DNA from: Scilla litardierei
Lineage: Eukaryota; Streptophyta; Magnoliopsida; Asparagales; Asparagaceae
Reading direction: 5' to 3'
DNA: 64,000 nt
NCBI GenBank assembly: GCA_030789695.1
Contig: CM061142.1
Coordinates: 156,398,714 to 156,462,713, forward strand
A model generated the notes under the pieces. It was not told where the DNA came from. It saw only the letters and a list, made by a program, of their open reading frames with translations, and made no database searches. Positions 22,927 to 58,447 of this stretch are shown here, piece by piece. A program made the translations under genes and the position numbers. The first letter of the stretch is position 1. Every line of letters starts with the position of its first letter.

Positions 22927-23671
22927 TGAAGGGTTATCTAGGACCCTTACGGCACAAAAACTCTATTCCTGTACTAAGTCGGACGGAACATAGACATAAA
23001 AATGCAGCGGAAAAATTATGTTAATCTAATTAACATGCAGCCCTAAGGAACCAGACCCTCTTAGCCAGGATCTCTGGCAACTTGGGATGGATCTGACCAC
23101 CCCAAGAGGGATCTAAACTACTGCAAATAATTAAAATGAAAAGCTTCTAAAAACATACCTGGAATCTCAACCCTGGGGTGGGCAAGATGTTCCGCACCGT
23201 CTTCTGAGCTGCTCCCCATCCCACGCCGAGCCGCTCCTTGAACCGCTCCCCGAACCGCTTCGCATCCCGAGGCAAGCAATCCTCGTGTCGCCGAGCCAAC
23301 CACGCGCCGAAGAAAGTTTCACGCGAGTAAAAGCCTTCGCCAAGATTTCGGATTCGAATCCGAACTCCTTCGCGGCTTTGCTAGAGCCCTCAGGAGTAAG
23401 GGAGAAATTATAGGGAGATAGAGAATATTAATTTAAGCCTAGATCCGAGAGTGCTCCTACATTTACAGGAGCCGCTCAGATCTTGAGCTTGGGACGAGTT
23501 TGAAGGAAGGGGAGAGGCCCCTATTTATATAGGCGGCTGACTCTCCCCCTTTCCGCACAACCGATGTGTGACTATTAAATTAGAGTTAATCAAATCAAAT
23601 TAGTTTGCCTTTCATAAAGGGCAAACTTCTGTGAATTTAACTCGCTCACCGTTGAGCTTCAATCTTGGTAC
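22927..23671 (-). repeat. Element C 3' LTR, left part
   Basis: Starts TGAAGGGTTATC; continues at 30458 after the S1 insertion. Contains a TATA-like CTATTTATATAGG at 23520-23532 (minus-strand sense CCTATATAAATAG). Confidence 0.85.
23667..23671. repeat. Target-site duplication of S1, left (GGTAC)
   Basis: GGTAC before the left LTR, repeated at 30453-30457. Confidence 0.93.
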
Positions 23672-44266: not shown

Positions 44267-44925
44267 GTCATTAGAATTTATCTCATAAATTTTAATGGTT
44301 TCTTAATGGCTAACCTAAGAGGTATGTCTTGTGTTATCAAATAAGGGACAAGATGACATAGCCATTAACATAAAGGTACACTAATTTTATCGCATAAAAG
44401 AGTGTACAACTATTTAACAATTAAATAGAACAACGTTTATCAAATAAACAATTTTAGCATGCATACTTAAATTTAACATTTAAATTTAAAACTATGATTT
44501 TTAAAACATTTTATTTTATCTCATAAAAAGTTTGTTTTAAAAAATCACAAAATTTGCATGTTACTTAAAATATTTATCGCATAAAAATTTTAAACTTTTA
44601 AAATCAGTTTTAAAATTATCACATAAATTTAAAACATCATTTTAAAAATTTCATGCTTAAAAATTTATCATATAAGATTTTTAAACATCTAAAAAACATT
44701 TTAAACTTATCGCATAAAATTTTAAAGTTTTAAAATCAGTTTTAAAATTATCACATAAATTTAAAACATCATTTAAAAAAATTTCATGTTTAAAATTTTA
44801 TCTTATAAAATATTAAACATCTACAATCTTTTTAAACTTATCGCATGCATTTAAAGAAACATTTTAAAAGGCATTTAAAAGCGTTCAATTAATTAATCGC
44901 AGTCCTAGATCAGCATACAGAGATG
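44267..44925 (-). other. Element C leader next to its 5' LTR, no gene
   Basis: AT-rich leader dominated by TTTAAAA and ATCGCATAAA motifs. Two imperfect copies of a segment of about 125 bp (44577-44690 and 44705-44815) share TTTTAAAATCAGTTTT and ATCACATAAATTTAAAACAT. No gag is visible, although it would normally start near here. Confidence 0.6.
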
Positions 44926-44938: not shown

Positions 44939-45470
44939 TGAAGGGTTTTCTGGGATCCTTAGGGCACAAAAACTCTATTCCCGTTCTAAGTCGGACGGAA
45001 CATAGACTTAAAAATGCAGCGGAAAAAATATGTTAATCTAATTAACATGCAGCCCTAAGGAACCAGACCCTCTTAGCGAGGATCTCTGCCAACTTGGGAT
45101 GGATCTGACCACCCCAAGAGGGATCTAAAATAATGCGAATAATTAAAACGAAAAGCTTATAAAAACATACCCGGAATCTTAACCCTGGGGCGGGCAAGAT
45201 ATTCCGCACCGTCTTCCGAGCCGCTCCCCGTCCCACGCCGAGCCGCTCCTTGAACCGCTTCCCGAACCGCTCCGCATCTCGAGGCGAGCAATCCTCGTGT
45301 CGCCGAGCCAACCACGTGCCGAAGAAAGTTTCACGCGAGTGAAAGCCTTTGCCAAGATTTCGGATCCGAATCCGAACTCCTTCGCGGCTTTGCTAGAGCC
45401 CTCAGGAGTAAGGCAGAAATTATAGGGAGATAGAGAATATTAATTTAAGCCTAGATCCGAGCGTGCTCCA
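44939..45470 (-). repeat. Element C 5' LTR, first part
   Basis: Matches 22927-23455. Interrupted at 45470 by Athila1. Confidence 0.88.
45466..45470. repeat. Target-site duplication of Athila1, left (CTCCA)
   Basis: CTCCA before LTR start TGGTCGCTCC; repeated at 58373-58377. Confidence 0.93.
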
Positions 45471-45831
45471 TGGTCGCTCCGGGACGTAACCCAAAAGAAC
45501 AGTTGTAGTTTTACCGCAAGTGCACGGTGTAGCAGCGAGCGGGTTATCGAACACAGGGAGGACGAATGACCGTGCTTGTTCCGATCAACCTGGCTATTTA
45601 AGAAGAGAGAAATTTGCCTTTGGCGATCCTGTCACAATCGTCAGACAATAGTACGGAAATATCAAATCAAATAAAGAACGTCTAGGGAATGGGGAATTCC
45701 CGCTACTCACCGTATTCCGTAAAAGTGGTTCATTGGTATCAAAGTTGCTAGAATAAGATTTTGGATGAACTAGTTGCAACTGAATGTAGAACCAAGCTCA
45801 CGCTCTCGCGCTGTTGCCGGTCTATAGCTAT

Positions 45832-46134
45832 CCTAGGCTCGGGTCCAATCTCTTGCAAACCCTAGCCTAGGGAAGCTAGCATTAGGATCAACATCATCGT
45901 TCAATCGCGCACCGAGCCCAATCTCTTGCAAACTCGGTCCACGACCTAGTTTGGGATAGTTCCTACCCGTCCAATCTCTTGCAAACGGGTATTGGCGCGG
46001 AATTGGAACCGGAAACCCTAGTATCGGTCCAATCTCTTGCAAACCGATACTACGGAAATTCGATTCCAACCCAATTCGGATTTCTAGGGTTTCCTATCGA
46101 ATTGGGATCCAATCTCTTGCAAATCCCAATCGAT
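45832..46134 (-). repeat. Five hairpins with one constant loop, Athila1 3' LTR
   Basis: Each hairpin has the same 14-nt loop CCAATCTCTTGCAA (plus strand). Stems differ: CCTAGGC..GGGT (45832), ACCGAG (45911), TACCCGT (45964), GTATCGGT (46021) and ATTGGGAT (46101), each matched by its own complement after the loop. The last three stems are perfect over 7-8 bp. They lie in the transcribed part of the LTR; in the RNA the loop reads UUGCAAGAGAUUGG. Confidence 0.92.
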
Positions 46135-46520
46135 GTGAATTCCTAGCCATCCGTAGTAAATTGTTCCCAATCTAATCCCTAGTAGCAATTCTAGCAAAAT
46201 TCCTAACAATTCATCACAATTATGAAATAGGGCTTGTAGGGTTCATCCCCACGCCCCAAGACGTGGCGACTACTCACAATTCATAGCAAGATCACAAAAA
46301 TAATCAATGAAATAAGCAATGGAATTCATCACAATATTGAGATATGCAATAAAAATAGAATTTTTAGAGAAGAGAAAAGCAAACCAATGGAGTTCTTCAA
46401 TTAATCCAACAAAAGACCAATTTTTGTCTCCTCTCCAATCACAAGAATAAAACTAAAAAGCTAATCTAAAAAGCTGTAAAAAATCTAAGAGAGAGGCTCC
46501 CAAAACTAGGGTAAAAACAG

Positions 46521-46535
46521 GGGTTAAATAGCCCC
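46521..46535 (-). promoter_or_regulatory. TATA-like box of Athila1 3' LTR
   Basis: Plus strand GGGTTAAATAGCCCC; minus sense GCTATTTAACCC, about 80 bp past the palindrome array. Confidence 0.55.
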
Positions 46536-46613
46536 CAAAATCGTCCAAAAACTGTGACCAAAATACCCCTGCGCAGCCTGTTTTCCGCAATTTTCGCTGC
46601 AGGCAGCGCGTCG

Positions 46614-46994
46614 CACTCGGCCGAGTGACAAAAGTCGCTCGGCCGAGTGAAAACCCTGTAATTTTCCAGTAAGTATCGATCTTCAGGGGTCTTCACTTCG
46701 GGGGCGGCTCGGCCGAGTGAGTTGTCGTCACTCGGCCGACGGCTTCATGGTACTCGGGCGGACGGGATTATCCACTCGGCCGAGTGGGTCTTCTGAAGCT
46801 CAGGCAGCCGAAAAACAGTAACTTGGAGATTTTTGAAGGGCTTCGTCTGGGCGCCACTCGGGCGGACGGGGTCTCGTCACTCGGCCGATGTGGTATCCGT
46901 CGCTCGGCCGAGTGCACGTATGAATCGTGTCTGATCTGGTCGGCCGAGCAGTGTCTCGCTGGTCGGCCGAGTGACTCCTTCACTCGGCCGAGTG
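46614..46994. repeat. CTCGGCCGAG array, Athila1 3' LTR
   Basis: About twelve copies of CACTCGGCCGAGTG or close variants (for example at 46614, 46637, 46707, 46773, 46901, 46981), some half-changed to CTCGGGCGGACGG. Spacing is irregular, about 20-70 bp. Confidence 0.92.
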
Positions 46995-47289
46995 GGACAC
47001 AAAACATGCCCAAACTGCTTATTTTGGCCTCCTCGTCGCTCCTGCGACGTCCGTTCTTCTTCCGCTCCTCTCCAACAGCAAAATACCCCTCGGGGAGGTC
47101 GTCGGTGACCGTCTGGAGTAAGCGCATCTCGAGATCACTCCAAATCGCGCCAAATCACCTGAAATGCGACAAAAACAACAAATCGTGAAAAGCATCGCAA
47201 TATCGTCGATATATCGTGAAAAACATGATTTGGGCGATCTAAATGGCATGCAAACATGCGGGAAAAAGGTGTAAAATAAGGAGTGATCA

Positions 47290-47303
47290 AAATCCACCAA
47301 GCT
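47290..47303 (-). promoter_or_regulatory. Athila1 LTR-adjacent polypurine tract
   Basis: Plus strand AAATCCACCAAGCT; complement AGCTTGGTGGATTT adjoins the LTR. Athila2 has the same element as AGCTTGGGGGATTT. Confidence 0.75.
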
Positions 47304-49263
47304 TGCCTCTTACTCGTCCTCGAGGAAGATAAGTAAAAGGCGAACCCGGTGGATTCGGAAAACAAAAACGGCGAAAAAATGAAAAATGAAAAACGGAGAA
47401 GAGTGAAAAACGAAATAAAAATAAAGAAGAAAGAAAGAAGCGAAGAGGTAGGCTGCTAGATTATTTTCTCAGGACGTGGGTTCCGCTTACTCATATAGCA
47501 TGCACTGAATGAAAAACACATGTCAAAGAATTTTATTTTGATATCATAGTATAATAGTGCAAATAGAAATAGAAAACCCACGAACAACAATATAATCATG
47601 AAAAACGGAATAATTTTATAATTAACACCGTCTGAATCATTTAAAGCGGTATACAAATCACAGATCACACACTTTTCAATTGAATGCTTTCTATCAGGAG
47701 TATAAGAGTATCACGCTATAGAATAGAGAGAATAGAAAAGTATGGATTTCATGATATGATTGCTAGGCTTAGATTTCTGGATGTCGTAAAGCTAAAAATA
47801 ATCTCACCGAGTATAGAATATTACTTAGCCTAGGTTGTCGTGCAACGTCAAGTAGTCACTCTCTCACACATCAATGGATCCCCTCCCCCAAGCTTATCCA
47901 TAAGCGTGGTGGCATAAAAAATATTTACATCCCCATTTCTATAAAGCTCCAAAAGCAATGAAAAGAGAAGAGAAAGAAAGAAAGTGAGATGGGATCTTTT
48001 ATTGAGGATTTTCCTCTTTTCTCTTTTTTTTGATGCAAAAGCATATATACACAACGATCCCAACTCAAAGAGAGATAATCATATACAGGAATATTTTCTC
48101 TTTTTTTTATTTTCTGAATCAGAAATTTGGAGCTAGGAATTAATAACGGGGGAAATGCCGTATAATAGAATCGCTAGGGGGAGATTCACCAATGATTTTA
48201 AAAGTAGAGAAATGATGTTCAAGATTTGTGGAGAAAGAAATAAATATATCACTCGGTTCACTCTATAAGACATGCACGACAACTTCAGCAGGGTAATCTA
48301 ATCTACTCAGTTTTGATCACAAAAAAGCTAACTAATCCAGATTTATCATAGCTAACATCATTCAATCATCCTGAAGTGAAATGTACAATTCATGCATATA
48401 GAAGTGATATAGGAAAAGAAATCAGTACTCCAGACATAGGCATTCAATGCGTGAATCTTGGTGTGTTTTCTGTGATAGCATACATATGAATATTCAGACT
48501 CAGCTAATAATAAAATTTCATCCATTTTCATGTGGAAAAAGTGTGGGTTACTATCTCTAGATGCAAGGCAAGTCATAGCATATGATATCAGAAATAAAAT
48601 CTAAGACATGACAAATAAAGCATGCATATAGAATAAGCTAACTCCACGTCATCATCATCACAGAAAAGTCATCTCTAGCATGAGATGAAAAAGAAAGAAA
48701 TAAAGATAAATGGAAAATAGAACTATTTACAATGCGGCACACAGAAAAATAAGAAAAACGTGATGCATGGCAAAATAAAAGAAAAATGATGAAAAATAAG
48801 TGCTAGAGCGAAAAACGGTGTGAAAAAATAAAAATAAAGGTGGCAAACGAAAAAATAAAAATAAAGGTGGCAAACCGAAAAAGAACGTGAGAACTCACTC
48901 CCCCAAGCTAAATGGCACAGTGTCCTCAATGTGCAAAGTGGGGCACACCGAGAGACAAGTAAAGTGAGGGGCAAGTGAGGATGCATGCATGATGAAAAAA
49001 AAAGAAATGAAAATAAAAAGAAAAATAAAGAAATGAAAATATGATGCGGACATGATGCATGCAGGAATGGAGTGATACAGATATATAGATGTGTCACCAA
49101 AAACTCTCCCTCTCTCCCAGAAAAGATATGTAAATATATGGTCGACATGAGAATCCCAAAATAAGTGAGCGGAGGGGGGGGGGGGGGGGTGGACAAAACT
49201 GCAACAGGACCCAGCAGAAATGGGCAGCACAACGGCAGGAATAATCGATGGCATCAAGTGTGC
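47304..49263 (-). other. Athila1 3' non-coding region
   Basis: 2 kb of AT-rich DNA without a credible gene. It includes polypurine-like motifs (minus sense AGCTTGGGGGAG) at 47883-47894 and 48898-48909; the latter is followed by a TGTCCTCAATG block also found in Athila2. Confidence 0.7.
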
Positions 49264-50357
49264 CTAAGAAGGTGGTTCTGCGCCGTCTCCGTCCTGAGGC
49301 GGAAGTGGTGGTGGCTGAACATACCGTTGAGCGGGTGTGGGTGTGGAAGTGGTAGCAGGCTGAGTGTGTGTGGAAGTGTGGGTGGGAACCTGCTGGGTGG
49401 GTGGTGGTACGCGGGGGAGACGCTCCAGGACATGGGTAAGACAGTAGTGAATCTGGGGGATCAGGTCAAAGCGGCCAGCCATCGCAGAGACGGTGGAGGA
49501 CAGAGTCCTAAGGTCACCTCTGAGGCCACTCACCGCCCCCTCTAGAGCACGAATGCTCTGAAGTACAGTGTCGGGGGGAGGTGGTGCAGAGGGACGCACC
49601 GGTCGGGGCTGTGCAGGGCGGGGCTGGCGTACTCGGGTCGCGTATGTGACGGGCTCAGCGGGGAAGGGAACGAAAGGTGCAGTGCTCGCAAATGTGGGCC
49701 TGGCCTCAGTGTGAGGCCGGGGCACCGGCTGGTGAGACGTGGAGGCAGCAGCAACGAAAGAAGAATATAAAAGAGGCAGTAAGGCGGCCAGAGAGGTCAG
49801 TGGCACAGAAGTGTGGACAGACGCCACGACACTCTCGGAGAATACAACAGCAGTGGAGACAGAGGGCTCTCCGCACTCAACTACGGTCGGCGGGCGCTCG
49901 GGTGGTGCAAAGGAAACATGCTCAGCAGACAGAGGGCCAGTGGGGGTGGTGACAGTCGCGGGAGTGGTGGAGGTGGGCTCAGCTAAGGTACTCCTGACAC
50001 CGACAGAGGTGGGGACAGAGGTGTCAGGAGCAGCGGAAACATCAGGGATAGGCTGAGGGGCCACAGGGTCAACAGGGGCGGCAGGCTCGGCAGGGGCGAC
50101 AGGGTCTGCGGGGGCAGCGTGGGCCTGCTCGGCCTCCTCGGCCTCGAGCACGTAAGCAGCGGGGATGAGAACATCCATCGCAGGGAGCCAGTCAACGTGG
50201 GCCGGTGCAATCTGAGTCCGAGCTGGGCTCGGAAGAATCATGTAATCGGCACCGTAAGGGCCGTGCAGCCAGACCCAGTGACGCTCACCGTGGGACGAAG
50301 CATCTTCATCCGGGCCATAACATCGATCGACAAAGCAGTGGGGCCCGGTACTCGTCA
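49264..50357 (-). pseudogene. Athila1 post-pol ORF, C-terminal part in shifted frame
   Basis: About 364 residues, low-complexity, rich in Pro, Ala, Thr and Val (repeats like PADPVAPAEPAAPVDPVAP) with a more ordered stretch near the end (LQSIRALEGAVSGLRGDL). It lacks its own ATG (the frame opens at a GTG at 50358) and begins where the preceding frame stops, so it is most likely the tail of the same protein separated by a frameshift at about 50355. Function unknown. Confidence 0.6.
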
Positions 50358-51308
50358 CAAGTCATCAGGGAAGTCCTCGCCGGTCATAAGAGCAAGCAAG
50401 GTGATCAGGCCGCCGCAGCATATCGGTGAGCGAGCGCCCACCGATACAATGATGCGGTCCAAAAACCAAGCCGCGACATCAATCACGACGGCGGGGACCA
50501 GCTCATCGCCATCCCTAGATAGAGCTCTGGGACGTGTCATCGCGTAGAGCATGTAGAGCTCCGGCGTAGACATCGTGCCCGGCTCATATCTGGCCAAAAA
50601 GGTCGTCGCCATAAGGCGCTGAGCAATGCGGAGGCAGGGATGGACAATGGCCGAGGCCTTGGCCCTACTAGGGTCAAAGGCAGCGTGAAGACCCGTAATC
50701 CGGGCCCAGAAGGCACCGGCGTCGAAGGAAGGTGGGGGGATATGGGTGGGGCCGTAACCGCGATCGGCTCTGGGGACAGCGGGCCACGAGAAAAATGCTC
50801 TCATCATATCGAGAGTGACCTGGCACTCCCGGTCCATGAACTGAAACGAGCATCCCTCGTCGGTCCGGGCGATCGAACTAAGAATCTCAAGTGTCGGGCG
50901 GGTGAACGTGTCCGCCGACACCTGGAAGAAATCTCGCCAGCCCACGTTGTCGTACAATGTGAGCATCCCCTCTAGTACCCCCAGGCGTCCTAGGTCGGCA
51001 AGGTGTGCAAACCTGGAGGGTACGATCGAGCGCTTGGAGATACGCTCGAAGACGGCGTGGTGTGCGTCGTCTCGGAACGTAATCCCGAGCGGCCCGACCA
51101 GTGGAGCCGGAGGTGGTGGCTGTGGAGCGGCGGGGAGTGGCTGTGCGGGCTGTGCGGGCTGTGTGGGCGCTGCAGGCTGTGCGGGGTGGATGGGGTGTGT
51201 GGGAGACGGTGGAGGAGAGTCCTCCAACTCGTGGGAGGGGCCGGCATCATCCGACCGCTTCCGCTTGGCGGAAGCTCTCTTCGACCGCGGCCGTGTCCGG
51301 GGCGGCAT
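50355..51308 (-). CDS. Athila1 post-pol ORF, ATHILA ORF-1-like
   Basis: 317-residue frame starting MPPRTRPRSKRASAKRKRS, a basic stretch resembling a nuclear localisation signal, then a Pro/Ala-rich linker and a globular domain (about residues 95-300: AVFERISKRSIVPSRFAHLADLG, GMLTLYDNVGWRDFF, MDRECQVTLDMMRAFF). The globular part resembles the plant retrotransposon ORF family called ATHILA ORF-1 / putative plant transposon protein. It sits after pol, the position sometimes called env-like, but I see no signal peptide or membrane segment, so an envelope role is not supported. It starts about 550 bp downstream of the internal TATA-like box. The name rests on pattern recognition. Confidence 0.7.
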   Translation of the reverse strand: MPPRTRPRSKRASAKRKRSDDAGPSHELEDSPPPSPTHPIHPAQPAAPTQPAQPAQPLPAAPQPPPPAPLVGPLGITFRDDAHHAVFERISKRSIVPSRFAHLADLGRLGVLEGMLTLYDNVGWRDFFQVSADTFTRPTLEILSSIARTDEGCSFQFMDRECQVTLDMMRAFFSWPAVPRADRGYGPTHIPPPSFDAGAFWARITGLHAAFDPSRAKASAIVHPCLRIAQRLMATTFLARYEPGTMSTPELYMLYAMTRPRALSRDGDELVPAVVIDVAAWFLDRIIVSVGARSPICCGGLITLLALMTGEDFPDDL

Positions 51309-51856
51309 ATCGGCCCTGAGCGTGCGCCGAAAAGTGTAAAAAGTGTGGCGTGTGCAAAAGAATGGAAAGAGTATACCCAGACACGCCGCGAGTGCTAAGC
51401 AATGGAAGCGTGCGAAGTCAGCGCCTCTGCAAAGCCCAAAGCAGTCCGTAGAAGCTCCCCGGGGCTCCCCTAAGCTCCCAAAAACAACCTGCGCATGAAA
51501 TGGCGATATCAGCAGGTAATATTCAAAACGTATGGAGCATTAGGGGTATAATAGATAGATATAGAAATTGATTAGGGTTTGGGGGTCGTTTAATACATGA
51601 ATCCTCGAAAAACACACAAAAAGAGGAGAAATAGGGCGAATCAGGCGATACCGGAGGTGGTCGGAGCGGCGGTGGACGGCGGCGACTCCGGCGAGGCTCG
51701 GCGGGTGCTCGGCCGGCGGTGGCTGGCCGAGCGGCGACGCGGTGGTGGTCGACCGGGCGAGTGAGGGCGCGAGCGAGCGAGGGTCGGGCGAGGGAAGCTG
51801 AAGGGTCGGGCGGTTTTGGGGTTTTCGCGTTTCGAAAAACGTGCCCCCCCTCGGCC
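51309..51856 (-). other. Leader between internal TATA-like box and Athila1 post-pol ORF
   Basis: No convincing gene; GC-rich near 51650-51830 with short frames only. It would be the 5' leader of an internally started transcript. Confidence 0.5.
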
Positions 51857-51867
51857 ACTTATATAGT
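51857..51867 (-). promoter_or_regulatory. Internal TATA-like box of Athila1
   Basis: Plus strand CTTATATAGTA, minus sense TACTATATAAG, placed just past the internal palindrome array in the direction of the post-pol ORF. Confidence 0.6.
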
Positions 51868-51884
51868 AAAAGTTACGACTCGGC

Positions 51885-52205
51885 TGAATGACTATGTCAC
51901 TCGGCCGAGTGGGATCAATGGAAATATCCTCCTCGCTTACGCTTCGGCCGAGTGGCTTTGCCAGCCTCGGACGAGTGGAGTAAGTCCATTCGGCCGAGTG
52001 GCTCAAGCTACTCGACAAGACTCGCCCTAGGAGCGTATCCGTTTTACTCGGCCGAGTGAAAATATATACTCGGCCGAGTAGCAGTTATACTGAAATCAAG
52101 GAAATAAACAGAGAGTTGGGTACAGCAGACTTCCCTCGTTCGTGAGTGGCTCGGCCGGACGAACTTGTGTACTCGGCCGAGTGACTAGTATACTCGGCCG
52201 AGTGA
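51885..52205. repeat. Internal CTCGGCCGAG array of Athila1
   Basis: About ten copies of ACTCGGCCGAGTG and variants (51898, 51943, 51991, 52047, 52069, 52171, 52191), the same motif as in the LTR of this element but in unique internal DNA. Confidence 0.92.
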
Positions 52206-52533
52206 GCCTTGTTTTCTGCTGTTTGTCTTCGTTTGGGCTCTAAACTCCGTCTTTCTTCCTCCAGTCGATTTCATCTTACTCCTAAGCATCGAGCGTCTTC
52301 CTGGGGCGCTCCTCGTTGTCTCGTTCATCCTCCTCATGATGGATTTACCTATCTCCTCTCCTGTCAAGAAAAATGGGACCCGTTATCACAAAATTTTTGG
52401 GCGAACGACTCAAAAACACTAAAAATTTCTAAAACAAAAATAAAGAAAAAGTAAAAATAAAGCAATAACCATCGGGTTGCCTCCCGACAAGCGCTCGTTT
52501 AAGGTCGTGAGCTCGACCCCCTATGATTTTCAA
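52206..52533 (-). other. Athila1 spacer after pol stop
   Basis: Contains GGGTTGCCTCCC (52474-52485) and a GCGCTCGTTTAA block also present after the Athila2 frame (63070-63081). No gene. Confidence 0.6.
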
Positions 52534-55500
52534 TTAACGCGGGATGTTTGGTGCATATGAGATGCACCCATCAAACTTTCCGGGGAGAACGCTTGGATTT
52601 GGAAGTTGCGGTAGCGTGTTCTCCCGTGGTGGTCTCTCGTCTCGAATTGTGTTGGGGGGAGGCTCCCCCAAGCTAGCGTTTGCTCCGGTCAACGGCTTCA
52701 CCGGTGACGCCGATTTTCGTAGCGGCGGAGCTTTCTTCGGAGACTTTTGTTTCGAGAGCTTGCAGAGCTCTCGAATCCTTGCGACATCAGCGTCGCCTTC
52801 ATCATTTTCAGTGGAGAGGTCGGTGGAATCATCTATCTTCTCATCTTGGCCTAAATCTGGGCCTTCATCAAAATCCTCATCGAAAAGAGCGCCAATCGAG
52901 TGGGGGATCGCCTCTTCTATCACCTCATCAAGGAGGTGTGATAGATCATCCGGCCGTCCCTTAAGCAAATATATTCTATTGGTTTCGCCCGTCGGGACTC
53001 CCTCGGAATAGTGTTTGAGTCTCTGACCGTTTACTTTGAATGTGGAACCGTCTTTGCTTTCCAACTCGAAAGCTCCTCCCGGTTGTATGTGCTTGATGGT
53101 GAAAGGTCCGGACCAACGTGACCTCAACTTACCGGGAAATAGTCGGAGCCGGGAATTATAGAGCAAGACCTTGTCTCCTACTTTGAAGTCCGTGACGGTT
53201 ATGCGGGCATCGTGGAGAATCTTGGTCCTTTCTTTATAAATTCTTGAGCTTTCGTAGGCGTCTCTTCTTATCTCATCAAGCTCGTTGATGTCCAAGAGTC
53301 GCCTCACCGCCGCCCTCTTGTAATCGTAGTTAAAGGTTTTGATGGCCCAATATGCGCGGTGCTCCAACTCTACCGGTAAGTGGCAAGCTTTCCCATAAAC
53401 GAGTCGAAACGGTGTGGTGCCTATAGGAGTGCGAAAGGCCGTGCGATATGCCCATAGAGCATCGTTTAGCTTCATTGACCAATCCTTTCTAGATCGATCC
53501 ACCGTCTTTTCGAGAATTTGCTTAATTTCTCTATTTGAGACTTCCACTTGGCCGCTTGTCTGGGGGTGATATGCCATGCCGACTCTATGATTTACCCCGT
53601 ACTTCTTTAGCATGGCTTCAAACTTGTTCTCTGTGAAGTGGCTCCCCCCGTCGCTTATCAAGGTACGAGGCACTCCGAAGCGCGGGAAGATATTTTGCTT
53701 GAAGAACTTGGAGACGACCCTTACATCATTAGTAGGGGTGGCGATTGCTTCCACCCATTTGGAGACATAGTCGACGGCCAATAGGATGTATTTGTTGCCA
53801 TTGCTCGACGGAAATGGTCCCATGAAGTCTACTCCCCAACAATCAAAAAGCTCAATTTCTTGGATGGGCCTCATTGGCATCTCATTGCGCTTGGAGATAT
53901 TCCCGGTCCGTTGGCATCTATCGCACCCCTTTACAAAGTCGTGGGTGTCTTTAAACATTGTCGGCCAAAAGAACCCGCTCTGCAAAATCTTAGGGGTAGT
54001 TTTAGAGGCGGCATGATGTCCTCCGCATGGTAGACCGTGGCAATGCAAAATGATGGATGTCGCCTCCTCTTTAGAAACACACCTCCGAATGACGCCATCC
54101 TTGCATATCTTGAAAAGGTATGGATCTTCCCAAAAATAGCTACGGACCTCATGCAGAAATCTCCTCTTTTGATGCGTGGGCATCCCATGCGGTTTAATTC
54201 CACAAGCCAAGTAGTTGACGAAGTCCGCGTACCAAGGTACTTCACCGGTCCTTATGGCATATAGCCTCTCATCCACAAATGTGTCGTCGATAGGCAAACT
54301 CTCATCCTCCTTGTCGCGAATGAGCCTAGATAAATGATCCGCCACGACATTGTCCGTACCCTTCTTATCTCTGATCTCTAAGTCGAATTCTTGCAACAAA
54401 AGTATCCACCTAATCAACCGAGGTTTGGCCTCCTTCTTGTTTAAAAGATACTTCAATGCCGCATGGTCGGTGTGGACAATCACCTTGGAACCGAGGAGGT
54501 AGGAGCGAAACTTCTCTATGGAATAGACGACCGCTAGAAGCTCCTTTTCGGTAGTTGTGTAGTTTTTCTGCGCGTCATCCAATGTCTTGCTCGCATAGTA
54601 TATCGCATGAAGCTTCTTATCTTTTCTTTGTCCCAACACCGCTCCAATGGCTTGGTCGCTAGCATCACACATTAGCTCAAAAGGAAGGCTCCAATCCGGT
54701 GGTTGTATGATGGGCGCGGAGACTAGTGCTTCCTTCAAGGTGTTGAAGGCTTGCAAGCATTCTCCTGAAAAAACAAAAGGAATATCTTTAGCGAGCAAGG
54801 AAGTGAGCGGTCGGGCAATCGAGGCAAAATCCTTGATGAAACGGCGGTAAAACCCCGCGTGACCAAGAAAGCCTCTAATGCCCTTGACATTAATAGGAGG
54901 GGGAAGTTTCTCGATTACCTCAATCTTTGCTTTATCTACCTCAATTCCTCTCGAAGAGACAAGATGTCCGAGAACTATACCTTCTGTGACCATGAAGTGA
55001 CACTTCTCCCAATTGAGAGTGAGATTGTTTTGTTGGCACCTTTTTAGCACTTTAGTAAGATTTTCCAAGCAAGAGTCAAACTCACTTCCATAAACCGAGA
55101 AATCATCCATAAAAACTTCCATAATATTTTCAATGTAATCGGAAAATATGGATGTCATACACCTTTGAAAGGTGGCGGGAGCATTACAAAGGCCAAACGG
55201 CATCCTACGGTAAGCATAGGTGCCATAGGGACAAGTGAAAGTTGTCTTCTCTTGGTCATCTTCGTGCAAAGGGATTTGGAAGAATCCCGAATACCCGTCT
55301 AGATAGCAAAAGTATTTATGTTTTGCAAGGCGTTCAAGCATTTGATCGATGAAGGGCAATGGGTAATGGTCCTTTCGGGTGGCTTTATTGAGTTTCCTAT
55401 AGTCGATGCACATTCGCCATCCCGTGACGGTGCGCGTAGATATGGGCTCACCTTTTTCATTTTTTATGACAGTCATCCCCCCTTTCTTGGGGACGACGTG

Positions 55501-56067
55501 AACGGGGCTAACCCACCTACTGTCAGAGATAGGATAAATTATCCCGGCTTCTAGCAACTTTAGGATTTCCTTTTTAACCACCTCCTTCATATTAGGGTTT
55601 AACCGCCTTTGAGGCTCTATGGAGGTGGCGTCAGTATCCTCCAAATGGATCCTATGCGTGCAAAGCCTAGGGCTTATCCCTTTTAGATCGGAGATAGTGT
55701 ACCCAAGGACATCTTTGTGGCTCCTAAGAACGTCTAGGAGTTTCTCAAGTTGGTCCGGTGTGAGGTGGGAGTTTACTATCACCGGGAAAGTTAATTTGTT
55801 ACCCAAAAAGGCGTACCTTAGATTCGGAGGTAATTGTTTAAGTTCTACCTGAAGAGGCGCCGCTCCCTCTACTTCATCAGCTCGCATGAGTTTGGTTTCT
55901 TCCTTGTCAGCCGGGTCTAGCTCGTGCTCAGGTGGCGCGCTCTCTTGTGAAGAGTCAGACTCACTGCTTAGTGAGGACAATGCATCGAAATAGGCGCGCT
56001 CCGATTCTGTGCTAGCGTCATCAGAGCTTTCACTCGGCTCCGGTTCATTCCTGGAATCAAGAAACAC
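52534..56067 (-). CDS. pol: Athila1 pol: reverse transcriptase, RNase H, integrase
   Basis: Open for 1177 residues without a break. RT at about residues 130-330 ([36 protein letters not shown]; catalytic FMDD). RNase H at about 420-540 ([46 protein letters not shown]). Integrase has an HHCC finger (H..H near [19 protein letters not shown]) and core [39 protein letters not shown], so all three acidic residues are present. An acidic N-terminal stretch precedes RT. No protease: DSGA/DLGA is absent. The frame is open a little upstream of this Met. This is the best-preserved enzyme set in the window and could act in trans. Confidence 0.93.
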
Positions 56068-56435
56068 ATCAGACGACTCGTAGAAGTAAGGGTAAGTGTC
56101 AGGGGTGTAACTCCCTGAACGATGGCTTGCTCTGAAGATCCTCCCGAAGTATAGTGATCCTCGACGCTTGTTCTACCGTCTTCGAAATATAGCTTGTCGT
56201 CCATCACATCAACTCTGACGTTGCCTCCGATAGTCCCTTCCGGGGAGACTTGGTCCATCACAAAACTAGCAAACAGTTGCTCGTCAGGGTCCTTGACGTC
56301 GATAGCAAAAGCTCCGGTAGCGTGGACCTCATCGACAAGCTCCTTAAGGAGGTTTGTGAAGGAGTCATAGTCTTCCTGACTGAGTTCTATTGTTGACATT
56401 GCATCCTCCATTCTTTCTGTAAAGACCTTATGCAA
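55968..56435 (-). CDS. Athila1 short frame upstream of pol, unknown
   Basis: 155-residue frame overlapping the start of pol by about 100 bp in another frame. Its N-terminal part ([38 protein letters not shown]) looks protein-like; the part overlapping pol is probably accidental. I do not recognise it; it is not gag (no zinc knuckle, no capsid motif). It occupies the place where gag and protease should be and may be a fusion left by their deletion. Confidence 0.4.
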
Positions 56436-56528
56436 AATACAGGGAGAATATGCAAATAGAAGAAAGTAAAGAAAGAGAGAAAGAAGAAGTAACCGGGTGG
56501 TCGATGACGAACACCGTCAAAATGCCTG

Positions 56529-56546
56529 TCCCCGGCAACGGCGCCA
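56529..56546 (-). promoter_or_regulatory. Athila1 primer-binding site (tRNA-Asp)
   Basis: Plus strand TCCCCGGCAACGGCGCCA equals the 3' end of plant tRNA-Asp including CCA; its complement TGGCGCCGTTGCCGGGGA is the classic Athila primer site. Six bases separate it from the LTR. Confidence 0.92.
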
Positions 56547-56913
56547 AAAACTTGGTCGCTCCGGGACGTAACCCAAAAGAACGGTTGTAGTTTTACCGCA
56601 AGTGCACGGTGTAGCAGCGAGCGGGTTATCGAACACAGGGAGGACGAATGACTGTGCTTGTTCCGATCAACCTGGCTATTTAAGAAGAGAGAAATTTGCC
56701 TTTGGCGATCCTGTCACAATCGTCAGACAATAGTACGGAAATATCAAATCAAATAAAGAACGTCTAGGGAATGGGGAATTCCCGCTACTCACCGTATTCC
56801 GTAAAAGTGGTTCATTGGTATCAAAGTTGCTAGAATAAGATTTTGGATGAACTAGTTGCAACTGAATGTAGAACCAAGCTCACGCTCTCGTGCTGTTGCC
56901 GGTCTATAGCTAT

Positions 56914-57216
56914 CCTAGGCTCGGGTCCAATCTCTTGCAAACCTTAGCCTAGGGAAGCTAGCATTAGGATCAACATCATCGTTCAATCGCGCACCGAGCC
57001 CAATCTCTTGCAAACTCGGTCCACGACCTAGTTTGGGATAGTTCCTACCCGTCCAATCTCTTGCAAACGGGTATTGGCGCGGAATTGGAACCGGAAACCC
57101 TAGTATCGGTCCAATCTCTTGCAAACCGATACTACGGAAATTCGATTCCAACCCAATTCGGATTTCTAGGGTTTCCTATCGAATTGGGATCCAATCTCTT
57201 GCAAATCCCAATCGAT
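56914..57216 (-). repeat. Five constant-loop hairpins, Athila1 5' LTR
   Basis: Same five hairpins as 45832-46134, with one change in the first stem (ACCT for ACCC). In this LTR they lie between the transcription start and the primer site, so in the 5' leader of the genomic RNA. Confidence 0.92.
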
Positions 57217-57602
57217 GTGAATTCCTAGCCATCCGTAGTAAATTGTTCCCAATCTAATCCCTAGTAGCAATTCTAGCAAAATTCCTAACAATTCATCACA
57301 ATTATGAAATAGGGCTTGTAGGGTTCATCCCCACGCCCCAAGACGTGGCGACTACTCACAATTCATAGCAAGATCACAAAAATAATCAATGAAATAAGCA
57401 ATGGAATTCATCACAATATTGAGATATGCAATAAAAATAGAATTTTTAGAGAAGAGAAAAGCAAACCAATGGAGTTCTTCAATTAATCCAACAAAAGACC
57501 AATTTTTGTCTCCTCTCCAATCACAAGAATAAAACTAAAAAGCTAATCTAAAAAGCTGTAAAAAATCTAAGAGAGAGGCTCCCAAAACTAGGGTAAAAAC
57601 AG

Positions 57603-57617
57603 GGGTTAAATAGCCCC
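57603..57617 (-). promoter_or_regulatory. TATA-like box of Athila1 5' LTR
   Basis: GGGTTAAATAGCCCC, minus sense GCTATTTAACCC. Confidence 0.55.
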
Positions 57618-57695
57618 CAAAATCGTCCAAAAACTGTGACCAAAATACCCCTGCGCAGCCTGTTTTTCGCAATTTTCGCTACAGGCAGCGCGTCG

Positions 57696-58077
57696 CACTC
57701 GGCCGAGTGACAAAAGTCGCTCGGCCGAGTGAAAACCCTGTAATTTTCCAGTAAGTATCGATCTTCAGGGGTCTTCACTTCGGGGGCGGCTCGGTCGAGT
57801 GAGTTGTCGTCACTCGGCCGACGGCTTCATGGTACTCGGGCGGACGGGATTATCCACTCGGCCGAGTGGGTCTTCTGAAGCTCAGGCAGCCGAAAAAACA
57901 GTAACTTAGAGATTTTTGAAGGGCTTCGTCTGGGCGCCACTCGGGCGGACGGGGTCTCGTCACTCGGCCGATGTGGTATCCGTCGCTCGGCCGAGTGCAC
58001 GTATGAATCATGTCTGATCTGGTCGGCCGAGCAGTGTCTCGCTGGTCGGCCGAGTGACTCCTTCACTCGGCCGAGTG
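57696..58077. repeat. CTCGGCCGAG array, Athila1 5' LTR
   Basis: Counterpart of 46614-46994, upstream of the TATA-like box in element direction. Confidence 0.92.
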
Positions 58078-58372
58078 GGACACAAAACATGCCCAAACTG
58101 CTTATTTTGGCCTCCTCGTCGCTCCTGCGATGTCCGTTCTTCTTCCGCTCCTCTCCAACAGCAAAATACCCCCCGGGGAGGTCGTCGGTGACCGTCTGGA
58201 GTAAGCGCATCTCGAGATCACTCCAAATCGCACCAAATCACCTGAAATGCGACAAAAACAACAAATCGTGAAAAGCATCGCAATATCGTCGATATATCGT
58301 GAAAAACATGATTTGGGCGATCTAAATGGCATGCAAACATGCGGGAAAAAGGTGTAAAATAAGGAGTGATCA

Positions 58373-58377
58373 CTCCA
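58373..58377. repeat. Target-site duplication of Athila1, right (CTCCA)
   Basis: CTCCA right after LTR end GGAGTGATCA. Confidence 0.93.
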
Positions 58378-58447
58378 ACATTTACGGGAGCCGTTCAGAT
58401 CTTGAGCTTGGGACGAGTTTGGAGGAAGGGGAGAGGCCCCAATTTAT
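58378..58447 (-). repeat. Element C 5' LTR, second part
   Basis: 70 bp between Athila1 and Athila2, matching the block around 23460-23530 (GGAGCCGTTCAGATCTTGAG). It is cut at 58447 by Athila2. Confidence 0.85.

What the first reader, a model, noticed from the sequence alone, without database searches (positions are those of the whole stretch)
45832..46134. Five hairpins with an invariant 14-nt loop and five different self-complementary stems in the Athila1 LTR
CCAATCTCTTGCAA occurs five times within 300 bp, each time flanked by its own perfect or near-perfect inverted repeat (arms such as TACCCGT, GTATCGGT, ATTGGGAT). Simple repeat duplication would copy stems with loops; here the loop is constant and stems differ but always pair. 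This is the signature of RNA (or single-stranded DNA) structures under selection. Both LTRs have it; in the 5' LTR (56914-57216) it lies between TATA-like box and primer site, so in the genomic RNA leader, where packaging, dimerisation or translation signals usually lie. I know of no described element of this form.
Basis: partly seen in the sequence, partly recalled or inferred. Interest (0 to 1): 0.86.

Follow-up and report, generated by a model that had tools for sequence, protein, structure and literature searches.

The report
GNRA-capped RNA hairpin array in Athila retrotransposon
A very abundant plant retrotransposon carries five small RNA hairpins in its leader whose stems change freely but keep pairing while their tips stay fixed, the mark of a working RNA signal, probably one that marks the element's RNA for packaging.

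Summary
In detail: five copies of CCAATCTCTTGCAA, each inside its own inverted repeat, lie in both LTRs of an Athila-type element on the minus strand. The host genome (3.68 Gb) holds 167,774 exact copies (reversed-pattern control 5). I compared 77 further arrays, 72-99% identical to the window's. In sense RNA the 'invariant 14-nt loop' is itself folded: U.G pair, UG bulge, 3-bp stem, GAGA (GNRA) tetraloop. The pair closing GAGA changes A-U to C-G jointly. On internal tree branches stem changes keep pairing (47 of 62 single, 10 of 11 double), GAGA never changes (0, against 20 on tips), and G.U outnumbers A.C 27:6. On tips single changes mostly break pairs (105 of 177) and the G.U bias is gone (48:42). 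So the hairpins were selected as sense RNA and decay after insertion. Kissing through UUGCAA is weakened, since C-G caps lose that palindrome. Most likely this is a multivalent packaging or Gag-binding signal; that function is inferred. The family also looks split into gag-protease and pol elements sharing the array.

The parts
45832..45871 (-). hairpin h1, 3' LTR copy (loop 45845-45858)
   Evidence: 12 of 13 positions outward from the loop pair, one A.G mismatch
45905..45944 (-). hairpin h2, 3' LTR copy (loop 45918-45931); closing pair is U.G in sense RNA, A.C in antisense
45964..45991 (-). hairpin h3, 3' LTR copy (loop 45971-45984)
   Evidence: 7 perfect pairs
46019..46052 (-). hairpin h4, 3' LTR copy (loop 46029-46042)
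   Evidence: 10 perfect pairs
46096..46134 (-). hairpin h5, 3' LTR copy (loop 46109-46122), stem with one bulged base
56914..56953 (-). hairpin h1, 5' LTR copy; one stem position is A here and G in the 3' LTR (sense strand), so one more pair is broken
56987..57026 (-). hairpin h2, 5' LTR copy
57046..57073 (-). hairpin h3, 5' LTR copy
57101..57134 (-). hairpin h4, 5' LTR copy
57178..57216 (-). hairpin h5, 5' LTR copy
45471..47289 (-). 3' LTR (TG...CA on the minus strand)
   Evidence: 99.3% identical to the 5' LTR over 1820 columns, 12 mismatches and 1 gap
56553..58372 (-). 5' LTR
45466..45470 (+). target-site duplication CTCCA, one side
   Evidence: read; same five bases at 58373-58377
58373..58377 (+). 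target-site duplication CTCCA, other side
   Evidence: read
57606..57612 (-). TATA-like box TATTTAA; with a start about 27 nt downstream the array would lie about 370-670 nt inside the transcript
   Evidence: pattern only; no transcript data
56530..56546 (-). primer binding site, tRNA-Asp-like
   Evidence: sequence; the tRNA identity is recalled
52534..56172 (-). pol ORF, 1212 aa: RT, RNase H, integrase; no gag or protease domain found in this copy
50355..51539 (-). ATHILA ORF-1 family protein (PF03078, E 8.6e-9)

Best explanation
The five motifs are RNA hairpins in the 5' leader (R/U5 part of the LTR) of an Athila-lineage Ty3-type retrotransposon. Each is a stem of arbitrary sequence carrying the same cap: U.G pair, two-base UG bulge, three-pair inner stem, GAGA (GNRA) tetraloop. 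SHOWN (comparatively): the structure is kept by selection in the sense RNA of transposing lineages and decays after insertion; the cap's bulge and tetraloop are the most constrained parts and the stems mainly need to pair. INFERRED: the cap is bound by a protein, most likely the element's own Gag or a host partner, and five copies give multivalent, cooperative binding that marks genomic RNA for packaging. Unrelated stems would keep the five repeats from mispairing and from being deleted by reverse-transcriptase slippage. INFERRED: because the family looks split into gag-protease elements and pol elements with the same array, the array would let particles made by one class take in RNA of the other. 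My odds: selected sense-RNA structure about 0.95; protein-bound cap about 0.7; packaging role about 0.45.
For: Across the five paralogous hairpins 8 of 13 pairs change on both sides and 61 of 65 cells pair (0 of 500 shuffles as high on either). In 22 aligned arrays 95.1% of 1615 cells pair, against 15-47% for slid partners, and 12 of 74 pairs change on both sides. On a tree built from spacer columns only (79 arrays), counting changes from a paired state: internal branches 47 kept and 15 broken single, 10 kept and 1 broken double; terminal branches 72 kept and 105 broken single, 5 kept and 4 broken double; Fisher p 1.8e-6 for singles. With internal branches of 3 or more tips only: 34 and 8 single, 8 and 1 double. 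Slid partners give 0-2 kept doubles against 15. Internal G.U:A.C 27:6 (binomial p 3e-4), terminal 48:42. GAGA 0 internal and 20 terminal changes, bulge 1 and 11, inner stem 10 and 37, spacer 221 and 256. The pair closing GAGA is C-G in h2 of 17 of 22 rows and in h1 of 4 of 22. The pairing result holds with CpG changes left out and in both subsamples; the G.U bias is not significant in the smaller one (11:3, p 0.057). The 28 closest loci found through the other end of the LTR all carry the array. Gag-class and pol-class arrays mix in the array tree (18 arrays of 14 elements).
Against: No binding, probing or packaging data. The Gag ORFs read (L211, L213) show no CCHC zinc-knuckle pattern, the usual RNA-binding part of retroviral Gag. 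The inner 3-bp stem has only moderate predicted probability (0.56-0.68, lower for h2 in the 3' LTR copy), and h3 alone folds better in antisense. 'Further pair types' and 'pairs with a change on both sides' do not exceed shuffles (483 and 59 of 500 as high). One of 13 LTR differences breaks a stem-1 pair without compensation, as expected after insertion. In the 43-row subsample the bulge, inner-stem and outer-stem rate tests are not significant. Rows were found by exact loop match in at least one of five hairpins, so loop variation is somewhat under-sampled. Ancestral states are parsimony, alignment is automatic, some rows are the two LTRs of one element, and all arrays come from one genome.
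Confidence: 0.55

Rival explanations
1. Kissing-loop dimerisation: the loop's 6-nt palindrome UUGCAA pairs between two RNA copies, as proposed for Ty3's CUGCAG dimerisation site.
For: UUGCAA is self-complementary and sits in the apical part of all five hairpins of this element; the Ty3 site is an apical palindrome with the same UGCA core (PMC11381356, passages).
Against: A random 14-mer holds a 6-nt palindrome 13% of the time; the UUGCAA duplex is weak (-4.5 against -7.7 for CUGCAG). 57 of 395 caps are UUGCAC..GUG, which keeps the GAGA stem and loses the 6-nt palindrome, though the UGCA core stays. GAGA, which lies outside the palindrome, is the part that never changes on internal branches.
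Confidence: 0.12
2. The array acts on translation, nuclear export or stability of the element's RNA (shunt, export or protective element) rather than on packaging.
For: It lies in a predicted leader of about 1 kb with 9 AUGs before the primer site and forms stable stems; export elements and shunt structures of retroelements are also leader hairpins (recalled).
Against: Nothing specific was found for or against; a shunt as I recall it needs one long stem rather than five with a frozen cap. Not excluded.
Confidence: 0.25
3. Neutral origin and upkeep: template switching (snap-back at the GNRA mini-hairpin) makes stems that match and repairs them, with no selection on the RNA.
For: Template switching can create and maintain perfect stems, and GNRA loops are enriched at such events (PMC8794818, passages). 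It may explain how unrelated stems arose. In the 37-row subsample one internal branch carries three kept double changes.
Against: Neutral upkeep should not keep pairing mainly on internal branches, should not favour G.U over A.C on one strand, and does not freeze GAGA (0 internal, 20 terminal changes). In the full set 8 of 9 internal branches with a kept double change carry it at a single pair.
Confidence: 0.05
4. DNA-level element: palindromic transcription-factor sites or cruciforms in the LTR.
For: U3 of the same LTR does carry palindromic CGGCCG boxes, like the Sirevirus repeated motif (PMC2829016, passages). CCAAT is in the motif.
Against: Arms vary while pairing is kept; internal changes favour G.U over A.C, that is pairing in RNA of the sense strand (27:6); the array lies downstream of the TATA-like box.
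Confidence: 0.03

Closest known systems
Retroviral and Ty-type leader packaging and dimerisation signals (Psi stem-loops, recalled; Ty3 5' region)
   Same: Leader hairpins near the primer site with functional apices; Ty3 uses an apical palindrome near its 5' end (PMC11381356, passages).
   Different: Here five copies of one identical cap on unrelated stems, in a plant Athila LTR, with a bulged GNRA cap; function not tested.
Dispersed degenerate packaging signals (STNV-1 AxxA stem-loops)
   Same: A fixed loop motif on short stems, several (five putative) near the 5' end (PMC6475782, passages).
   Different: The STNV loop motif is short and degenerate, and that paper's in vivo data weigh against AxxA as a true signal; here the cap is 14 nt with comparative evidence of selection.
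Sirevirus repeated motif boxes (palindromes with CGG-CCG core in U3)
   Same: Repeated dyad-symmetric motif in a plant LTR; U3 of this very LTR has CGGCCG boxes too.
   Different: Sirevirus boxes keep their arms, lie upstream of TATA and are read as DNA signals; the hairpins vary the arms, lie downstream and are selected as RNA.
Template-switch-made RNA hairpins
   Same: Perfect stems around stable GNRA loops (PMC8794818, passages).
   Different: That is a mutation mechanism; here selection on the sense RNA is supported as well.

Membership tests
Athila lineage (Ty3-type LTR retrotransposon) | RT-RNase H-integrase order | tested here: met
   Pfam RVT_1, RNase H, H2C2, rve in this order in one ORF
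Athila lineage (Ty3-type LTR retrotransposon) | ATHILA ORF-1 (PF03078) after pol | tested here: met
   50355-51539 minus, E 8.6e-9
Athila lineage (Ty3-type LTR retrotransposon) | gag and protease upstream of RT | tested here: not met
   not found in this copy; present, without RT, in L211 and L213, which lie between copies of the array
Athila lineage (Ty3-type LTR retrotransposon) | RT phylogeny within Athila | not tested
   no RT tree was built
Structured RNA element under selection | compensatory change in stems | tested here: met
   two of five measures do not beat shuffles
Structured RNA element under selection | pairing kept in the transcribed strand (G.U over A.C) | tested here: met
   internal 27:6, terminal 48:42; 11:3 in the smaller subsample is not significant
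Retroviral-type packaging signal | binding by Gag and need for encapsidation | not testable with these tools
   no experiment; Gag ORFs read show no CCHC pattern
Kissing-loop dimerisation site | conserved apical palindrome | tested here: not met
   UUGCAA lost in 57 of 395 caps that keep the GNRA stem
Rfam families | match above gathering score | tested here: not met
   window 45300-47700: 5 matches, all miRNA models below gathering
Sirevirus repeated motif | constant palindromic arms with CGG-CCG core | tested here: not met
   the hairpin arms differ; the CGGCCG boxes of U3 are a separate feature

The most novel reading that the evidence does not exclude
A bipartite LTR retrotransposon: one class of element carries gag and protease, the other RT, RNase H and integrase. 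Both share LTRs and an array of five GNRA-capped hairpins that works as the common packaging code by which the two RNAs are gathered into one particle. The stems are free to diverge so that the repeated signal is not lost by recombination, a natural counterpart of engineered non-repetitive binding-site arrays (the last comparison is recalled).
Probability: 0.3. Interest if true: 0.92.

Novelty: new variant of a known kind. Interest (0 to 1): 0.77.

Why it matters
To my knowledge packaging and leader signals of plant retrotransposons are little known. Here selection itself, read from a family whose cap motif has 167,774 exact copies in one genome (77 of 82 sampled copies lay in the array), singles out a defined RNA module, sense-strand specific and ready for binding tests. 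If shared by complementary gag and pol elements, it would show how split retroelements stay together, and it gives a cap (UG bulge plus GAGA on a 3-bp stem) to look for in other plant genomes.

Tried and rejected
Exact 14-mer in viral contigs: the scan stopped at 120 stretches; the 80 listed each have one match and were taken as chance. Two-copy array pattern: none in viral contigs or genome contigs. Pol protein: no relatives in either. Search with a spurious ORF across the array: one candidate, none scoring. Text: no paper holds the motif strings; of the 4 Athila/LTR/hairpin/stem-loop papers listed none was opened; the 20 listed of 43 do not mention Athila; of 8 I saw passages of three; searches gave nothing to the point. 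Short strings recalled from other plant LTRs gave nothing useful in text, and GAGA-capped perfect stems are not a general feature of the window (two AT-rich ones). Searches for engineered MS2 arrays gave no passage on variable-stem arrays, so that comparison is recalled. Kissing through UUGCAA was my favourite after and was dropped. The other window group of hairpins with a shared loop (TTATCGCA, 44383-44837) is AT-rich repeats. Model R1 finds the ten known hairpins in the window; the next match has 14.6 bits, E 0.55. Five of 82 stretches (L158, L162, L164, L170, L209) had one loop, no array and no flanking stem and were left out of the counts. A loop-independent sample of diverged subfamilies (query from L134) was asked for five times and never answered. 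The subsample part stopped with an error and was redone.

Full report
OBSERVATION. The motif CCAATCTCTTGCAA is present five times in each of two repeats; every other listed site in the window has three mismatches. The repeats are the LTRs of an element on the minus strand: 45471-47289 and 56553-58372, 12 mismatches and one gap in 1820 columns, TG...CA ends, CTCCA on both sides, and a tRNA-Asp-like primer site (identity recalled) at 56546-56530. The body holds a 1212-aa RT-RNase H-integrase ORF and an ATHILA ORF. The flanks of the five motifs pair far beyond chance; arms of different hairpins are no more alike than chance and the spacers between them show no clear homology.

STRUCTURE. In the sense RNA the loop reads UUGCAAGAGAUUGG. 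Folding shows that it is not open: U.G, a UG bulge, CAA-GAGA-UUG. GAGA is of the GNRA class. A random 14-mer contains a GNRA closed by three Watson-Crick pairs in 0.25% of cases. Four of five isolated hairpins of the 3' LTR fold better in sense than in antisense, h3 the reverse. In a 1056-nt leader from the predicted start to the primer site, the first three pairs outward from each loop reach 0.93-1.00 in all five hairpins; individual pairs further out fall to 0.47 or 0 at mismatches and ends, and the inner stem is at 0.56-0.68. In the 3' LTR copy with a 150-nt span h2 is lower (stem 0.68-0.72, inner stem about 0.5).

COMPARISON WITHIN THE FIVE. Eight of 13 pairs change on both sides; 61 of 65 cells pair; covariation 0.685 against 0.227 shuffled. 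These are paralogues, so this alone could be read as separate origins.

COMPARISON ACROSS THE GENOME. After many unanswered requests the genome search replied: 83,374 + 84,400 exact motifs in 3.68 Gb, against 4 + 1 for the reversed pattern. Only the first 100 places are listed. From the lists I took 80 stretches, 33 places and 47, and one search returned two loci (L149, L150): 82 in all. 77 hold the array; 5 hold one loop without array or stems. With the two window copies this makes 79 rows; the 77 are 72-99% identical to the window's.

WHAT CHANGES. Whole stem segments differ between subfamilies and still pair, for example h3 ACCCG/CGGGT against ATTCG/CGAAT, h4 AGTATCGG/CCGATACT against AGATTTGG/CCAAAGCT (one pair unmatched), and h5 and h2 closing pairs turned to C-G in some rows. 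In the cap, the A-U next to GAGA is C-G in h2 of 17 of 22 rows and in h1 of 4 of 22, with one U.G each. Over 79 arrays 272 of 395 caps are CAA-GAGA-UUG and 57 CAC-GAGA-GUG; among the 40 commonest cap types shown, 5 caps have U.G, 1 has A.G and none C.U at that pair with GAGA intact. On the 22-row alignment A3, 95.1% of 1615 cells pair and 12 of 74 pairs change on both sides, in 74 cells against 28.7 in shuffles; two of the five measures (number of such pairs, further pair types) do not beat the shuffles.

SELECTION OR DECAY. I built a tree from spacer columns only and reconstructed each stem column by parsimony (repeated). Internal branches represent lineages that went on transposing; tips mostly hold changes after insertion. 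Single changes from a paired state: internal 47 kept and 15 broken, tips 72 and 105 (p 1.8e-6). Double: internal 10 kept and 1 broken, tips 5 and 4. Changes from an unpaired state (internal 26, tips 23) are not in these counts. Sliding the partner by 1-3 columns leaves 0-2 kept doubles instead of 15. Watson-Crick pairs turned to G.U against A.C: internal 27:6, tips 48:42 (49:42 before rows with gaps were left out). G.U pairs only in the sense RNA and A.C is its antisense equivalent, so the selected molecule is the sense RNA. Changes per class (internal/tip): spacer 221/256, outer stem 103/183, inner stem 10/37, UG bulge 1/11, GAGA 0/20. The pairing result holds on a tree from all columns, without CpG changes, and in the 37-row and 43-row subsamples; the G.U:A.C count is then 24:6, 23:5, 11:3 (p 0.057) and 15:3. 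In the 43-row subsample the bulge, inner-stem and outer-stem rate tests are not significant (p 0.083, 0.34, 0.063), GAGA is (0/12).

CAVEATS. Rows were found by an exact loop in at least one of five hairpins, so loops are somewhat protected from variation; but a change in one loop leaves four others to be found by, and the C-G cap was found although it does not match the pattern. The 28 closest further loci found through the LTR end (30 of 40 scored hits became loci, two of them the window's own) all carry the array but are young, at most 3.3% from the window's, so they do not test this. The fuller loop-independent sample was not obtained. Some rows are the two LTRs of one element.

FUNCTION. 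A cap whose bulge and tetraloop are nearly frozen while stems need only pair is what a protein-binding site looks like. Position (leader, before the primer site) and copy number suggest genome packaging; this is inference. Kissing through UUGCAA is less likely because C-G caps lose the palindrome. Gag ORFs read from L211 and L213 have a Retrotrans_gag domain, with protease in the same or the next ORF, but no CCHC pattern, so RNA binding would have to use another part, or a host protein.

A SPLIT FAMILY. The window element has pol but no gag or protease found. L212 is alike; L211 and L213 have gag and protease but no RT, RNase H or integrase by tblastn over nearly the whole piece between the LTRs. 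Reading the first 1.2-1.5 kb inside the 5' LTR of other elements, and counting those four: 25 of 36 begin with gag and 11 of 36 with pol, none with both in the part read. Of the 28 loci other than the window's, 13 are gag, 2 pol, 12 show neither (probably 3' LTRs) and L229 only a weak hit at 33% identity; these last 13 are not in the 36. Array-to-array distances, by subtraction from the places and taking neighbouring arrays as the two LTRs of one element, lie mostly at 9.7-10.2 kb for gag and 10.9-11.3 kb for pol, with exceptions: L211 (gag, 10.8 kb) and L259 (gag, 11.2 kb). For most gag elements only the start was read, so a pol further inside is excluded by length alone. Arrays of both classes mix in the tree. 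This fits mutual complementation in one particle; it is not proof.

KNOWN OR NEW. No paper with the motif strings was found, nor an Athila leader-hairpin description in what I searched (listings, and passages of three papers). Rfam has no match above threshold.

Noticed in passing
window 45471-58372; L211, L212, L213, L214-L225, L228-L260: The array-bearing family seems split: 25 of 36 elements start with gag (two read nearly whole: gag and protease, no RT or integrase), 11 of 36 with pol and no gag, 0 with both in the part read. A bipartite or mutually complementing retrotransposon.
   Followed up: partly
window 57700-58073 (U3 of the 5' LTR; also in the 3' LTR): Nine CGGCCG cores, three as full 14-bp palindromes CACTCGGCCGAGTG, upstream of the TATA-like box: like the Sirevirus palindromic boxes (PMC2829016, passages), but in an Athila-type LTR.
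   Followed up: partly
LTR columns 706-1428 (sense): No difference between the two LTRs over 723 columns, while 13 differences lie elsewhere; perhaps only fewer CpG sites.
   Followed up: no
C1 places, e.g. 185989/191763/196756 and 220125/225530: Some arrays are only 5-6 kb apart, suggesting a third, short class of element or nested copies.
   Followed up: no
window 44383-44837: AT-rich repeats with a recurring TTATCGCA core inside short inverted repeats.
   Followed up: no
window 23454-23528 and 58373-58447; 22927-23226 and 44939-45238: The element sits inside another repeat that has a similar copy at 22.9-23.5 kb, in line with the CTCCA duplication.
   Followed up: no
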